64,000 nucleotides of DNA from Sphingomonas koreensis (GTDB taxonomy: Bacteria; Pseudomonadota; Alphaproteobacteria; Sphingomonadales; Sphingomonadaceae): positions 1-64,000 of the forward strand of contig NZ_PGEN01000001.1 of the NCBI RefSeq assembly GCF_002797435.1, written 5' to 3'. Of this stretch, positions 41,544 through 50,321 are shown piece by piece. Numbering within the stretch: position 1 is the first letter of the stretch; every line of letters begins with the position of its first letter. A model generated the notes under the pieces. The model saw only the letters and a program-made list of their open reading frames with translations, did no database searches and was not told the DNA's origin. The position numbers were made by a program, and so were the translations under genes.

Positions 41544-41713
41544 TCACGTCCTCCGCCGAAATATTGTTGCGGCGTGAGGTAACGGAATGGCCGGGGCGGC
41601 GGCAAGCTGTGCGCGGCGTGTTTTCGACGAGCGACAGGTTTGCCAATCGGCGGGTGCATCGCTACATCGGCGCCAAATTCCCGGACACCCAGACAGACGA
41701 ACGGAGACCCGCA

Positions 41714-43393
<1,680 letters not shown>

Positions 43394-43396
43394 CCC

Positions 43397-44482
43397 TTAG
43401 GGCGTCAGCGTCACCAGCATTTCGAGACCGCCCGTCGCAGCCTTGCGGAAGGCGAAGTGGAGGCCCGGGTACATGGGTGAGCGGCCGGTCGCCGCCGCCA
43501 CCATCCGGGCCTTCGCCTCATCCTGGGCAACCGCAAGCCACAGATCGAGTGCCGGCACCGCCGGCCGCTTCCGGGCGACGCCGCGCCAGCGCGCTTCGCC
43601 GCTACCCGTCTGATAACAGGTCAGATCCTCGATGAAGAGGTTGGGGAAGCGGTGCGAGAGATTCGATCCGTTGACGAACGCGTAGCGGGCGATCTGGCCC
43701 GCGCTGAAATCGACTGGCTGATCGAACTCGATGCCGGGAGGGGGCAGGTCGCTGTCGTAGCGCGAAAGCTCTTCCTGCAAGAGCGCGGCAAGATAGGCGA
43801 GGTCGCTGCCGTTGGTGCAGGTGATTCCCTTGCTGAGGAACCATTGGTGAATAGCCTCGCGGCTGTCCGGCGCGACCATCGTCGAGAGTTCGGGGACGAT
43901 ATCGTCCCAGCCGTAATAGTTCATCCGGCCGTGCTCAAGCGTTCCGCCGGAACGCTCGAAAACCGGCAATGACGCCTTCATGTTGCGGCGGGCGATGTAG
44001 AGCTCGAACAGGATCCACCCGCGCTCCAGCATCGCCGCGAGGTCGTCCTCATGGCTCGATCCGGTCCGGCTGATCAGCGAGATATTCGCGCACCGCCCGA
44101 CCGTGCGGCGAATGTTGGAAAGCCCGCGCTGGAACAGCTTCCTGTCCGCGGCCGTCCGACGCTTCTGGGGCAGGCTCATATAATCGTACCAGAAGCAGAT
44201 ATCGGGATTCTGATAGTTATAGTGCCGGCCGAGATTGAGCAGCGCCCGGAGCTGCCAGCCTGTCGGGTCGGGGTGGCCGCGATCGTCCCAGCGGTGGGTG
44301 ATGAAGATCGGCCGCGCTGCCGACGGATCGCCGCTGTGGAAGAGGTGCGGCGCTGACCGGCGGATTTCCTGGTATTTCGGCAGGATCGCGCCCGCTTTCC
44401 AGAACGGCATATGATCGGCGAACGCCTTCAGATTGATGAAGGCGCCGACTTCGTCATGGCGCAGATCGAATCCGCCGGTCAT
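43397..44482 (-). CDS. TIR-like domain protein of unknown function
   Basis: A 361-aa protein I cannot place in a named family with certainty. Residues 57-162 follow the order of a TIR fold: a first strand and box 1 (RPIFITHRWDDRG, 57-69), a box 2-like CFWYDYMSLPQKRR (96-109), and a late RGWILFEL (154-161), where Glu160 sits like the catalytic Glu of TIR NADases in the S-x-W-C-x-E motif. The C-terminal 200 residues are unlike any domain I know. There is no signal peptide. It lies 17 bases after doxX on the same strand and ends 3 bases from ettA's stop. A NAD-consuming effector is possible but unproven. Confidence 0.65.
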   Translation of the reverse strand: MTGGFDLRHDEVGAFINLKAFADHMPFWKAGAILPKYQEIRRSAPHLFHSGDPSAARPIFITHRWDDRGHPDPTGWQLRALLNLGRHYNYQNPDICFWYDYMSLPQKRRTAADRKLFQRGLSNIRRTVGRCANISLISRTGSSHEDDLAAMLERGWILFELYIARRNMKASLPVFERSGGTLEHGRMNYYGWDDIVPELSTMVAPDSREAIHQWFLSKGITCTNGSDLAYLAALLQEELSRYDSDLPPPGIEFDQPVDFSAGQIARYAFVNGSNLSHRFPNLFIEDLTCYQTGSGEARWRGVARKRPAVPALDLWLAVAQDEAKARMVAAATGRSPMYPGLHFAFRKAATGGLEMLVTLTP

Positions 44483-44499
44483 GTCTCAGCTCAATCCGC

Positions 44500-44880
44500 T
44501 TATGCCCTGCCGCGGGCAGCATCCACGCTCCACGCGCCGCCGCCGGCTGCTGCGAGGTACAGGAAGATGAAGGTGAACAGCAGGATCGCTTCGCCGCCAT
44601 TGGCCGCAGGGAAGAACCCCTTCGATCCGTGTGCGAGCCAATAGCCCACCGCGCACATGCCCGACGCGATGAAGGCAACGGGGCGGGTGAACAGACCGAT
44701 CACGATCAGTGCGCCGGCGACCAGCTCGATCGCGCCAGCCGCATAGAGCAGCGGGTTGAGCGGCATGGGAAAGGGCGGCAGGCCGAAGAATTTCGACGTG
44801 CCGTGCTGAAGAAAGGCAAGCCCCGCGACGATGCGCAGGACGGCGAGCAGTTTGTCGGACCAGCTGGCAGGGATCGGCAT
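44500..44880 (-). CDS. DoxX family membrane protein
   Basis: A 126-aa protein with four hydrophobic helices. The DoxX signature is at the N terminus: LLAVLRIVAGLAFLQHGTSK, followed by LYAAGAIELVAGALIVIG, FIASGMCAVGYWLAHG and EAILLFTFIFLYLAAAG. The H-G-K in the first helix is diagnostic. DoxX proteins are linked to redox or thiol stress at the membrane in some bacteria. The ATG at 44880 follows AGGAGAC. The TIR-like gene follows 17 bases later. Confidence 0.9.
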   Translation of the reverse strand: MPIPASWSDKLLAVLRIVAGLAFLQHGTSKFFGLPPFPMPLNPLLYAAGAIELVAGALIVIGLFTRPVAFIASGMCAVGYWLAHGSKGFFPAANGGEAILLFTFIFLYLAAAGGGAWSVDAARGRA

Positions 44881-44982
44881 GATAGAGTCTCCTTGCGCGG
44901 CAAATGGCTGAGCGCCGTTGCGCAAGTGAAACCTTTCACGCTTCCCCGTTCTGATCAATCCCGGCTGAGGAAACCGATCGTT

Positions 44983-45981
44983 TCAGTCGCCGGTGACCCT
45001 GAGCGGGCCAAGATCGCCCAGGCCGACCATGCCACTCGCCATCGCCAGCATCCGGTCGAGGCTCTTCTTTGCCTTGAGACGGATTTCGTCCTCGATCTCG
45101 ATCCGCGGTTCGAGGTCGCGGAGCGCGATGTACAGCTTCTCCAGCGTGTTCATCGCCATGTACGGGCAGATGTTGCAGTTGCAGTTGCCGTCGGCACCGG
45201 GCGCACCGATGAAGGTCTTCTCCGGGACCGCCTTTTCCATCTGGTGGATGATGTGCGGCTCGGTCGCGACGATCATCGTGTCGCCGTCGAAATCCTTGGC
45301 ATATTGCAGGATACCGCTGGTCGACCCGACATAATCGGCATGGTCGAGCACGTGCGGCGGGCATTCGGGGTGCGCGGCGACCGGCGCGCCGGGGTGCAGC
45401 GCCTTGAGCTTGAGCAACTCGGTCTCGCTGAACGCCTCGTGCACGATGCACACGCCCGGCCACAGCAGCATGTCGCGGCCCATCTTGCGGTTGATATAGC
45501 CGCCGAGATGCTTGTCGGGACCGAAGATGATCTTCTGGTCCTTCGGGATCTGGCTCAGGATCTTCTCGGCCGACGAGCTGGTGACGATGATGTCGCTGAG
45601 CGCCTTCACCTCGACCGAGCAGTTGATGTAGGTCAGCGCGATATGGTCGGGGTGCTGTGCGCGGAAGGCTGCGAACTGCTCGGGCGGGCAGCTGTCCTCG
45701 AGGCTGCAGCCGGCGTCCATGTCGGGCAGGATCACAGTCTTGTCGGGGCTCAGGATCTTTGCGGTCTCGGCCATGAAGCGCACGCCGCAGAAGGCGATCA
45801 CCTCGGCATCGGTCTCCGCCGCCTTGCGGCTGAGTTCGAGCGAGTCGCCGACGAAATCGGCAAGATCCTGAATCTCCGGCTTCTGGTAGTAATGCGCCAG
45901 GATCACCGCGTTGCGCTCCTTGCGCAGACGTTCGATCTCGGCACGGATATCGACGCCGGACAGGTTGCTCGGTGCGTTCAT
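44983..45981 (-). CDS. nadA: quinolinate synthase NadA
   Basis: NadA (332 aa) condenses iminoaspartate with dihydroxyacetone phosphate to quinolinate, using a [4Fe-4S] cluster. Visible landmarks: ERNAVILAHYYQKPEIQDLA near residue 24, FCGVRFMAETAKILSPDKTV, ALTYINCSVEVKALSDIIVT, FGPDKHLGGYINRKM, AAHPECPPHVLDHADYVGST and the C-terminal GNCNCNICPYMAMNTLEKLY, which supply the cluster cysteines. The start at 45981 fits the family. nadC lies 8 kb away in the window; nadB is not here. Confidence 0.96.
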   Translation of the reverse strand: MNAPSNLSGVDIRAEIERLRKERNAVILAHYYQKPEIQDLADFVGDSLELSRKAAETDAEVIAFCGVRFMAETAKILSPDKTVILPDMDAGCSLEDSCPPEQFAAFRAQHPDHIALTYINCSVEVKALSDIIVTSSSAEKILSQIPKDQKIIFGPDKHLGGYINRKMGRDMLLWPGVCIVHEAFSETELLKLKALHPGAPVAAHPECPPHVLDHADYVGSTSGILQYAKDFDGDTMIVATEPHIIHQMEKAVPEKTFIGAPGADGNCNCNICPYMAMNTLEKLYIALRDLEPRIEIEDEIRLKAKKSLDRMLAMASGMVGLGDLGPLRVTGD

Positions 45982-46030
45982 TCTGGGACCCTCATTCTTT
46001 GGCTCCACATGGCCTTGTCCGGGTCCGGGT

Positions 46031-46831
46031 TCAACCCATTGGCGAGGGGAAGGGCGCGAAATCGAGCGGGGCAGCCACGGCACCGGGGGAACCCGCGGTA
46101 ACCGCCCGATAGATGGCAGAGCCAAGGGGCGAATAAACGATCAGCTCGGTGAGGATCATCACGCCCAGAAACGCGCCGAGGCCCCACCACCAGGCAGGAT
46201 GCACGCGACCGTCGCGGCGATAGTCGCCGATCATCCCTGCAGCCAGGAAAAGAAGGCCGGGCAGACTGGCGATCTGGTACGACCAGGGGATCATCAGCGG
46301 CATCGGCAGCAGCCGTCCGAAGCCGGGGCCGAGTAATGCGATCATCGCGCACATGTGCAGCCGCCGGTGCCAGTCGGTGCGCCGGCGCATCCTTACCGCA
46401 GCGACGGTCAATCCCGCAAATAGCGTCACCATCAGCGGATTGGCGATCAGGAAATGCTGGGGCCGGAAGAAGAAGGGCGTCAGGCCCGCACGGATCCGCA
46501 GCACGGTGATCCCGATCCCGGCGACCACCATCGCCACCACCCAGCCGACCGCGACCCAGCCGAGCCGGCGATGCAGCTCCAGCGGTCCGCGCGTCGCGAA
46601 GACGGATTGCGTGCAATAGATCGCGACCCACCCGAAGAAGATGAAGGCGTGTGCATGGACATAGAGCGGCGCGCCGAAGCTCGACCGCCCGGCCGCGAGG
46701 TGTAGCGAGAAGCCCGCGACGAGGACCGCCGCCATCGCGAACGCGCTCCACAGAAAAAAGCCGTCGTCGTTGCGCCGCGGTACGCCAGACGTGTCGTAAG
46801 CCGTCGCCATGGTGATGGTCCCCACGATCAC
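46031..46831 (-). CDS. hypothetical membrane protein
   Basis: A 266-aa protein with about seven hydrophobic helices. The second and third are joined by a histidine-containing motif (YVHAHAFIFFGWVAIYCTQS then LHRRLGWVAVGWVVAM), seen in a widespread family of unnamed bacterial membrane proteins; the paired His could bind haem or metal (inference). A second DWHRRLHMCAMIAL motif lies near residue 150. The start may be 46831 or the ATG at 46810. Function unknown. It ends 49 bases before the nadA start on the same strand. Confidence 0.7.
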   Translation of the reverse strand: MIVGTITMATAYDTSGVPRRNDDGFFLWSAFAMAAVLVAGFSLHLAAGRSSFGAPLYVHAHAFIFFGWVAIYCTQSVFATRGPLELHRRLGWVAVGWVVAMVVAGIGITVLRIRAGLTPFFFRPQHFLIANPLMVTLFAGLTVAAVRMRRRTDWHRRLHMCAMIALLGPGFGRLLPMPLMIPWSYQIASLPGLLFLAAGMIGDYRRDGRVHPAWWWGLGAFLGVMILTELIVYSPLGSAIYRAVTAGSPGAVAAPLDFAPFPSPMG

Positions 46832-46873: not shown

Positions 46874-47611
46874 CTAGTTTGCGCCGTCCCGCGCCTCGAT
46901 GTCCTTCATCACCTGACGGGGGGAGCGCGATACGTCCCAATGCTCGCGGGTCTGCGTGCCACGCTCGGGCGGGAAGGTGACCACGACGCGGACATCGCCT
47001 AGGCCTGCCGCGCTGAGCGGCTGGGCGAGCAGGCGGGCGAGTGCGCGCCGGGCATGCTCGCGAGCCTGCGCCATACGCTCAGGGCTGCGCGCTTCGCGTC
47101 CGGCGACATCGGTCGCACGGGCCGAGGTGCGCTGGCTGAGCGCTTCGGCAGCGTCACGCGTCACGAACAGCCCGCTGGTTTCCACCAGCGTGCGGCGGCC
47201 CTCATCGGTATTGGGGGGAGCAGCGGTCACGTCAGGTGCATCGACGATCAGCGTTCTGGTCTGCGCGTTCCATTGCAGGTCGCTGTCCCGCAGCTTCGAG
47301 AGATCGACGAAATAGCCCACCGAATAGGGCATCTTCACCACCTGATCGCTGCGTAGCCAGCCAAAGCCGCGAATGTCGGACGCGGTGGCCTGAACAATCC
47401 CCGAAAGCTCGGCGACCTGAAGCTTGCCGGTACCGGAGAGCTTGGCGGTGACGATCTGGGTCACCGGGGCGCCGCCCTCTTCAGGCAGGGTGGCCATCCG
47501 GGTTTCGGCATAGCGGTCCCACGAGATCCACGCCGCTGCGAGGATCACTGCGGCAGCGGCGGCGATCAGCAGGCCCCGGACCAGCGCCTCACGCCTCACG
47601 ACATCCGCCAC
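46874..47611 (-). CDS. DUF4230 domain-containing protein
   Basis: A 245-aa protein with one N-terminal membrane helix (VRGLLIAAAAAVILAAAWIS) and an extracytoplasmic domain. Landmarks include ELSGIVQATASDIRGFGWLR, VVKMPYSVGYFVDLSKLRDS and the C-terminal AREHARRALARLLAQPLSAA, then VRVVVTFPPE. This strand-then-helix order (S/G-x-V-D-L-S near the middle, long helix, small domain) fits DUF4230. Function unknown. Its start overlaps the stop of the MBL-fold gene by 16 bases, so the two are likely coupled. Confidence 0.7.
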   Translation of the reverse strand: MADVVRREALVRGLLIAAAAAVILAAAWISWDRYAETRMATLPEEGGAPVTQIVTAKLSGTGKLQVAELSGIVQATASDIRGFGWLRSDQVVKMPYSVGYFVDLSKLRDSDLQWNAQTRTLIVDAPDVTAAPPNTDEGRRTLVETSGLFVTRDAAEALSQRTSARATDVAGREARSPERMAQAREHARRALARLLAQPLSAAGLGDVRVVVTFPPERGTQTREHWDVSRSPRQVMKDIEARDGAN

Positions 47612-48608: not shown

Positions 48609-50321
48609 TCAATCCTTTTCGGCGTTCTGAACCTCGCGGATCGCCTCATCGATTCCCTTGAGCGCAGCGGCTCTCTGCGACGGGCTCAGGTGGGTTTGCG
48701 CTTCGATCGACTTGCGCGCCATCTTCAGGCCCAGCATCGCGTGGCGCTTGCCCAGATCGGCGCTGGCCAATGCGATGGTGCGGCTTTCCATGGCAATCGC
48801 TCGCGCAGCCTCGCCCGCCTCGCGGGAGGCCTCGGCGCGGGCCAGCGCAGCGTCGCGCGATGCCATGCCGCGTGCGATCGCGGCGTCGCGCGATGCCTCG
48901 GCACGAGCCAGGGCGGCCTCGCGAGAGGCGTCGGCACGGGCCAGCGCAGCGTCGCGTGCGGCCATACCACGCGCACGCGCGGCCTCGCTACGCGCTTCGA
49001 TGCGGTCCATGCAGATCACGATCTTGCGATGCTTGCCGTCCTTGCTCTCAATCTTGACCTCGCCGTCTTTCGGCGCGCCGCAGTTGGCAGAGCTGACGAC
49101 GGTCATGTCGGCGAGCAATTCGTCGCCATTCACGACCTTGCCGTCCTTGATGACGAGCCGCTTGTGCCGTGTGACGATGCTGGTGTCGTTGTCGTCGGTG
49201 ATGGTGATTTTGCCGTCCTTGTCGCGCGTGACGATGCGGATCTTCTTGGCCGCCTTCGCTTCGTCCGCCGGGGCGGCAGCTTCGGCCGGTGCCGCGGGCG
49301 CTTCCGGAGCCTCGGGCGGGGCAGGCGGATCCTGCAGATCGACGCCGATCGCGTCGCCGACATCGGCGCGCAGGTTCGCCGCCGCCTGGGTGCCGGACGC
49401 GGTGAGCGCCAGGCCGGCGAGCGTCAGCACCGCGGCGCCCGTGACGCCGGCAGTGATCCGCGTGCGCGACTTGCGGTCATGCTTCGCGAGCATCTTGAGC
49501 CTCCCCTTGAGTTCGTTGACGGTATGCAGATGACAGGCAGCCGAGACCGCACCCCCATGCGCGGACTTGACGATGGCGCGGCCGTACGCGTGGCGCAGCG
49601 CCGGGGCGCGGCCTGAGAGCACCAGGGCGTCGCAGGCCATCTCCTGATCCGCACGGAAGGCGCGGAACGCCCGCCATGCGACCGGGTTGAACCAATGGAG
49701 CGCGAGTACGACCAGCGCGATCCAGTTGGCGATCAGGTCACCACGCAGATGGTGACCGAGTTCGTGGGCGAGCGCGAGGTTGCGCTCGAGCGGGTCGTAG
49801 CGCTCGCTAAAGTCGCGCGGGAATGCGACATATTTCCGCCAGATACCGAAGGCGAGCGGACCGGTGGCGGCATCGGTCTCGATCACGTGCACGCGCCCCT
49901 CGGCAACGGTGCGTTCGATCTTCGCCCGGCGCAGCAGCCGCGCGCAGAAGCGGCCATGGGCGATCAAGTGATAGGCGAGGAAGGCAAGCGCCCCCACGGC
50001 CCAGATCGCGGCAATCACCGGCAGCCAATCGAACGGCGCGGCCTCAATCGGAACCGTGGTGGACGCTGCCGCCGCCTCAGGGACGGAGACCGGATCGACC
50101 ATATAATAGGTGATGACCTCGCTCGCCGCGGCGACCGGGGTCTCGGCGCTTGCCCGCCAGCTCTCGGGAAGCGGGGGCAGGGCGAGGCGAAGCACGGGAA
50201 GCGCCCAAAGCGCATAAGCGATGTTGGGGCCGAAATGACGGCTCACCGGCTTGCGGATCGCAAGCACCAGCAGCATCAGCAGCGTCGTCGCGACGAACGT
50301 CTCTACAGTCCAGGCGATCAT
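48609..50321 (-). CDS. BlaR1-like M56 family metallopeptidase with hendecad-repeat tail
   Basis: A 570-aa membrane protein. The N-terminal half has four membrane helices and the M56 zinc motif ALAHELGHHLRGDL (HExxH). A fifth helix near residue 295 (VTGAAVLTLAGLALTASG) leads to a periplasmic region with an Ala/Pro linker and then five consecutive 11-residue units (about 450-504: ARGMAARDAAL, ARADASREAAL, ARAEASRDAAI, ARGMASRDAAL, ARAEASREAGE). It lacks the penicillin-binding sensor domain of true BlaR1. Its start overlaps the BlaI gene by 4 bases. It probably senses an envelope signal and cleaves the BlaI-type repressor (inference from BlaR1/MecR1). Confidence 0.88.
   Translation of the reverse strand: MIAWTVETFVATTLLMLLVLAIRKPVSRHFGPNIAYALWALPVLRLALPPLPESWRASAETPVAAASEVITYYMVDPVSVPEAAAASTTVPIEAAPFDWLPVIAAIWAVGALAFLAYHLIAHGRFCARLLRRAKIERTVAEGRVHVIETDAATGPLAFGIWRKYVAFPRDFSERYDPLERNLALAHELGHHLRGDLIANWIALVVLALHWFNPVAWRAFRAFRADQEMACDALVLSGRAPALRHAYGRAIVKSAHGGAVSAACHLHTVNELKGRLKMLAKHDRKSRTRITAGVTGAAVLTLAGLALTASGTQAAANLRADVGDAIGVDLQDPPAPPEAPEAPAAPAEAAAPADEAKAAKKIRIVTRDKDGKITITDDNDTSIVTRHKRLVIKDGKVVNGDELLADMTVVSSANCGAPKDGEVKIESKDGKHRKIVICMDRIEARSEAARARGMAARDAALARADASREAALARAEASRDAAIARGMASRDAALARAEASREAGEAARAIAMESRTIALASADLGKRHAMLGLKMARKSIEAQTHLSPSQRAAALKGIDEAIREVQNAEKD

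What the first reader, a model, noticed from the sequence alone, without database searches (positions are those of the whole stretch)
43397..44880. TIR-like protein coupled to DoxX: possible undescribed effector pair
The 361-aa product has, in order, ITHRWDD (box 1-like), WYDYMSLPQ (box 2-like) and RGWILFEL with Glu160 where TIR NADases have their catalytic Glu. The C-terminal 200 residues match nothing I know. It follows doxX by 17 bases. TIR domains often work as NAD-degrading effectors in bacterial immunity, while DoxX is a redox-linked membrane protein, so a membrane-sensing/NAD-consuming pair is conceivable. The genes could also be unrelated neighbours, and core genes on both sides argue against a defence island.
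Basis: partly seen in the sequence, partly recalled or inferred. Interest (0 to 1): 0.7.

Follow-up and report, generated by a model that had tools for sequence, protein, structure and literature searches.

The report
Lone TIR-like gene beside doxX
A bacterium carries an apparently inserted single gene for a protein that looks like a distant, unnamed cousin of the TIR immune enzymes; its neighbour doxX appears to be there by chance.

Summary
The 361-aa ORF (43397-44482, minus strand) is real: codon-position GC fits its neighbours, it starts 17 bases after doxX and stops 3 bases from ettA's stop. Pfam, NCBIfam, PADLOC and PDB sequence searches gave no significant match. Two relatives were found, on a Pseudanabaena plasmid and an IMG/VR contig. 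All three share HRW-x5-PDPxGxQ, WYD[YF]xxLPQxxRT and LxRxWxxxE; Glu160 is kept in 3 of 3. Their profile aligns over 93 columns with 30 TIR_2 domains, with Trp156/Glu160 on the W-x3-E glutamate that TIR NADases need. The score alone is weak (1 of 500 permutations and 2 of 201 unrelated pieces reach it); the length of the alignment was unmatched. Structure predictions failed (pLDDT about 37-38). The DoxX pairing is not supported: 11 of 11 other genomes with the doxX orthologue lack the gene and two of them show the site empty. Best reading: a lineage-specific single gene for a divergent TIR-like protein, probably an NAD-cleaving effector of abortive-infection type. Function is inferred, not shown.

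The parts
43397..44482 (-). TIR-like protein gene, 361 aa (stop codon included)
43976..44317 (-). approximate TIR-like domain, residues 56-169, with ITHRW-x5-PDPxGxQ, WYDYxxLPQxxRT and LxRGWxxxE
   Evidence: aligned with two relatives and with a TIR_2 profile
44165..44191 (-). WYDYMSLPQ block, residues 98-106, in the place of the second TIR strand and its loop
44003..44005 (-). codon of Glu160, predicted catalytic glutamate
   Evidence: Glu in 3 of 3 members; pairs with the TIR W-x3-E glutamate
43400..43870 (-). C-terminal part, about residues 205-361, no significant relative found
   Evidence: pairwise scores within the range of shuffles; one PHROG of unknown function at E=0.0061, residues 261-345
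44500..44880 (-). doxX, 126 aa from the ATG; neighbour, not judged part of the system
41564..43393 (+). ettA (ABC-F) frame, convergent; other border of the insertion
   Evidence: NCBIfam PRK11819 EttA E=1.7e-282; site comparison
44983..46125 (-). nadA frame, upstream of doxX; also beside doxX in L034 and L043

Best explanation
The gene encodes a stand-alone protein with an N-terminal divergent TIR-like domain and an unassigned C-terminal part of about 150 residues. In this lineage it sits in what is a short gap between the convergent genes doxX and ettA in two relatives, and it may be transcribed from nadA-doxX. Most likely mechanism (inferred): the C-terminal part senses a trigger, perhaps a phage component; the TIR-like domains then oligomerise and, using Glu160, cleave NAD+ (or a related nucleotide) and stop growth, as in TIR-type abortive infection. 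Shown here: a real gene, a three-member family, motif and Glu conservation, collinear similarity to TIR_2, an empty site in two relatives. Inferred: fold, enzyme activity, trigger, defence role, gain rather than repeated loss. DoxX is judged to play no part in it.
For: Relatives: Pseudanabaena plasmid protein (domain tblastn E=2e-3 in 7.3 Gb; pairwise E=3e-8) and an IMG/VR protein (pairwise E=2e-8); the two match each other at E=1e-16. Invariant in 3 of 3: HRW, PDP, G, Q, WYD, LPQ, RT and R-x-W-x3-E. hhalign of the three with 30 TIR_2 domains: 93 columns, IFITH on IFLSH (box 1), FWYD on VWLD, WILFE on WVKKE. With match columns only: score 19.8, 93 columns, W on W and E on E; 0 of 500 column-permuted profiles and 0 of 201 other pieces of this window reach 80 columns. 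The TIR Glu is critical for NADase activity and is in more than 70% of TIR domains (PMC7075850, passages). Another TIR-like family, DUF4062, is an antiphage NADase whose activity is lost in an E97A mutant (PMC13174449, passages). Patchy presence: 1 of 101 genus and 1 of 298 family genomes, the own one. Empty site.
Against: The TIR score alone is modest: hhalign probability 6.2% or 3.6%; 2 of 300 and 1 of 500 permutations reach it, and so do 2 of 201 unrelated single-sequence pieces of this window. W and E fall on the TIR W and E in 18 of 500 permutations. No Pfam model hits any of the three members. Both structure models are unusable, and a fold search with the domain model shows no TIR among the 50 of 122 matches listed (best E=0.13, ribosomal/IF3 entries, then methyltransferases). 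No defence gene among 10 tested neighbours. Glu conservation rests on three members. No biochemistry.
Confidence: 0.55

Rival explanations
1. TIR-like fold but not an enzyme: a scaffold or a nucleotide-binding sensor that signals through homotypic contacts, with Glu160 kept for structure.
For: TIR domains most commonly act in forming signalling complexes and less commonly as NADases (PMC7075850, abstract in the listing and passages). Substrate residues other than Glu160 cannot be assigned here.
Against: The W-x3-E glutamate that TIR NADases need is kept in 3 of 3 members.
Confidence: 0.2
2. Unrelated fold: the three motifs belong to another domain that resembles TIR by chance or convergence of short motifs.
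For: Low profile score, reached by 1 of 500 permutations and 2 of 201 unrelated pieces; no database model or PDB sequence matches.
Against: Collinear 93-column alignment with W and E in register; 0 of 500 permutations and 0 of 201 natural pieces reach 80 columns.
Confidence: 0.2
3. The TIR-like protein and DoxX form a membrane-sensing/NAD-consuming pair.
For: Same strand, 17 bases apart, so co-transcription is likely; nadA (NAD synthesis) is next door.
Against: 11 of 11 other doxX-bearing genomes lack the gene; empty site in two of them; no doxX match better than E=0.26 beside either relative. A search for papers with both 'DoxX' and 'TIR domain' found 0.
Confidence: 0.04

Closest known systems
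Bacterial TIR domains, Pfam TIR_2 (PF13676)
   Same: Box-1-like strand (IFITH against IFLSH), W-x-D at the second strand, and W-x3-E with the glutamate in register.
   Different: Not matched by any Pfam model in 3 of 3 members. HRW, PDPxG, LPQ and W[YF]D[YF] occur in 0 of the 30 TIR_2 domains used (29 distinct; WYD alone is in 3 of 30). Two of three members have a long insertion before WYD.
Fungal HET domain (PF06985)
   Same: HET has three conserved blocks up to helix alphaC and remote TIR similarity (PMC4986451, section 16 read). The RGW-x3-E block recalls the HET RGW block (recalled from memory, from no call).
   Different: No PF06985 match in the window's whole genome at E<=10 or in the members at E<=1 or 5. 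A HET search of 229 genomes found nothing, nor did its controls, so it shows no absence.
DUF4062 TIR-like NADases (Swarozyc, TEP1)
   Same: A TIR-like family recognised only recently; one catalytic Glu; antiphage NAD+ depletion (PMC13174449, passages).
   Different: No Pfam model, so no DUF4062 model if Pfam holds it, matches any member.
TIR-based defence systems in general
   Same: Proposed mode of action: NAD+ loss after a phage trigger.
   Different: No PADLOC match for the three members or for 10 neighbours; no partner gene identified.

Membership tests
TIR domain superfamily | Match to a curated TIR model | tested here: not met
   Pfam 0 hits for all three members; NCBIfam 0 for the window protein, the only member given to it
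TIR domain superfamily | Collinear profile similarity to TIR from beta-A (box 1) to alpha-C | tested here: met
   93 columns with W and E in register; 0 of 500 permutations and 0 of 201 natural pieces reach 80 columns; by score alone 1 of 500 and 2 of 201 do as well
TIR domain superfamily | Five-stranded parallel sheet with five helices | tested here: inconclusive
   pLDDT 37.9 and 37.3; no TIR among the 50 of 122 Foldseek matches listed
TIR NADase | Catalytic Glu in the alphaC region, conserved in relatives | tested here: met
   Glu160 in 3 of 3; TIR column Glu in 27 of 29 residues
TIR NADase | NAD+ cleavage | not testable with these tools
   needs an assay
HET domain (PF06985) | Match to the HET model | tested here: not met
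   0 of 11 other doxX-bearing genomes carry it; no doxX match better than E=0.26 beside either relative
Defence island gene | Known defence genes nearby | tested here: not met
   0 of 10 neighbouring proteins chosen match PADLOC at E<=1e-5; the rest of the window was not scanned

The most novel reading that the evidence does not exclude
The three proteins define an unnamed clade of the TIR superfamily in bacteria (HRW-x5-PDPxGxQ / WYD[YF]xxLPQxxRT / RxWxxxE) that lies between bacterial TIR NADases and fungal HET cell-death domains, so that its biochemistry would show what HET domains do.
Probability: 0.2. Interest if true: 0.6.

Novelty: new variant of a known kind. Interest (0 to 1): 0.36.

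Why it matters
A TIR-like family that had been a domain of unknown function, DUF4062, has proved to be an antiphage NADase (PMC13174449, passages). A small stand-alone protein with the conserved Glu, and without the long insertion of its two relatives, is a tractable test case, and may bear on how HET domains kill fungal cells, which is unknown (PMC10890737, passages). The DoxX link itself has no wider meaning.

Tried and rejected
Single-sequence structure of the full protein and a two-sequence model of the domain: pLDDT 37.9 and 37.3, rejected as evidence; the Foldseek run on the second is not meaningful at that confidence.

The one genome contigs match (L002) lies on the strand opposite to a long ORF that looks like a radical-SAM protein (my reading, name recalled); I judge it chance. 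Four weak matches to residues 250-353 in 385 class genomes I judge chance after inspection. With the domain alone, 15 of 299 phylum genomes matched at E<=0.05, the own included; none of the other 14 loci (L009-L022) holds the WYD[YF]xxLPQ DNA pattern.

Viral contigs: protein and alignment queries matched 1 and 24 stretches, with no relative among them. DNA patterns gave 7 stretches, of which L030 is a real relative; 0; 2, being L030 and a helicase-like chance hit; 1, L030 again; and 11 judged chance. Full window protein against plasmids and phages: none. Relatives as queries: plasmids gave only the Pseudanabaena record, phages none. 149 genomes of the phylum of L002: 0, without a positive control.

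An apparent shared motif in the C-terminal parts was within the range of shuffles (reached by 72, 270 and 462 of 500). The genome draws overlap, so their counts are not additive.

Full report
What is there. The minus-strand ORF 43397-44482 encodes 361 aa from an ATG. Its codon-position GC matches neighbours. It starts 17 bases after the doxX stop, and its stop codon lies 3 bases from the stop of the convergent ettA. The flanks are ettA, doxX (Pfam E=3e-12) and nadA.

Databases. No family in Pfam, NCBIfam or PADLOC at E<=1; one PDB sequence at E=0.7, not significant; one PHROG of unknown function at E=0.0061, residues 261-345. The own genome has one copy at E<=0.001 and no TIR_2 match at E<=1e-8.

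Distribution. With the full protein, only the own genome matched in the genus draw (1 of 101) and the family draw (1 of 298), both at E<=0.001. In the class draw 5 of 385 matched at E<=0.01, the own and four weak matches to residues 250-353 that I judge chance. A three-member profile matched 1 of 398 in the phylum draw, the own. Plasmid and phage collections gave nothing with the full protein.

Relatives. The domain alone found a 379-aa hypothetical protein of a Pseudanabaena plasmid (WP_126390537.1; E=2e-3, 93% of the query). A DNA pattern for W-Y-D-[YF]-x-x-L-P-Q found one more among 7 stretches of IMG/VR: a frame of 766 aa on L030 that begins at the edge of the stretch held and may be longer. 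Pairwise E-values are 3e-8 and 2e-8 with the window protein and 1e-16 between the two. Domain alignments beat all of 1000 shuffles in each of three pairs. All three share FI/L-S/T-HRW, PDP-x-G-x-Q, WYD-[YF]-x-x-LPQ-x-x-RT and L-x-R-x-W-x3-E. The two relatives carry a long insertion between the PDP and WYD blocks that the window protein lacks. The C-terminal parts are not detectably related. A gene for a tetratricopeptide-repeat protein lies next to each relative; tblastn of doxX there gives nothing better than E=0.26.

TIR test. Thirty TIR_2 domains (29 distinct) were taken from the 59 matches, namely those with a stored locus. The three-member profile aligns with them over 93 columns: IFITH on box 1, FWYD on the second strand, the ISLIS stretch on IAVVLS, and RGWILFE on W-x3-E. 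That glutamate is Glu in 27 of the 29 rows with a residue there. Glu at this place is reported as critical for TIR NADase activity (PMC7075850, passages). The score is weak: hhalign probability 6.2%, or 3.6% with match columns only. The single sequences alone give only short or low matches (scores 16.2, 17.5 and 12.6). Controls against it: 2 of 300 and 1 of 500 column permutations reach the score, and so do 2 of 201 pieces of other ORFs of this window (in one search, with the window protein still included, 2 of 205 pieces reached it and 16 of 205 reached 16.2). For it: 0 of 500 permutations and 0 of 201 natural pieces align over 80 columns; W and E pair together in 18 of 500 and 0 of 201. The natural pieces were single sequences, the query a three-row profile, so that control is not like for like. 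Taken together I put the TIR relationship at about three in four.

Structure. AlphaFold2 without a deep alignment gave pLDDT 37.9 (full length) and 37.3 (domain with one relative). These decide nothing. The 50 of 122 Foldseek matches listed for the domain model contain no TIR.

DoxX. The doxX orthologue was found in 12 of 61 genomes at E<=1e-10, the own included. By their handles, the 11 others are all in the genus draw, where only the own genome has the TIR-like gene. Two of the 11 genomes are less than 90% complete (G012, G015). In L034 (doxX 87% identical) and L043 the order nadA-doxX-ettA is kept, with 54 and 45 bases, both stop codons included, between the ends of the doxX and ettA matches. 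In L037 and L042 doxX and ettA are 951 and 1075 bases apart with other ORFs between. The remaining 8 of the 12 other loci show neither nadA nor ettA within the 1.5 kb held on each side, so doxX itself is not always at this junction. The gene thus lies in a junction that varies between relatives; its closeness to doxX and nadA tells where it sits and perhaps how it is transcribed, not what it does. Gain in this lineage is the simpler reading, but loss in the others is not excluded. No sigma-70-like promoter was found in 43300-46300 (0, against 0.6 expected from shuffles), which says little.

Literature. HET domains have remote TIR similarity in three blocks up to alphaC (PMC4986451, passages and section 16); how HET domains induce death is unknown (PMC10890737, passages) and their enzymatic activity is not established (PMC10197012, passages). 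DUF4062 is a recently described TIR-like antiphage NADase family (PMC13174449, passages). 'DoxX' with 'TIR domain' gave 0 papers; 'TIR domain' with 'Sphingomonas' and 'anti-phage' gave 1 paper, seen as a listing only (that genus was my guess at the host, which no tool named). In the six searches of one open-access library I saw no title or abstract that describes this motif set; the motifs themselves were not search terms.

Verdict. A genuine, divergent TIR-like gene, probably an acquired single-gene effector; the proposed DoxX pair is not supported.

Noticed in passing
L037 about 498-1448 and L042 about 1876-2950: In two relatives the doxX-ettA junction holds other ORFs instead (readings that look like an acylphosphatase in both and a Uma2-like protein in L042; names recalled, not searched), so the junction seems a small site of gene turnover.
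   Followed up: partly
L034 1876-1929, L043 1882-1926: Where the gene is absent, a GC-rich hairpin (seen by eye, not folded) lies between the convergent doxX and ettA stops, followed by T's in L043; in the window the stops of ettA and the TIR-like gene are 3 bases apart, with no room for one.
   Followed up: partly
L030 4958-5875 and L007 6020-7444: Both relatives of the protein lie next to a gene for a tetratricopeptide-repeat protein.
   Followed up: partly
window 48609-50321: Protein with a BlaR1-like sensor match below the curated cut-off (99.8 bits against 400).
   Followed up: no
window 46874-47611: Protein with a DUF4230 match (E=4.7e-9).
   Followed up: no
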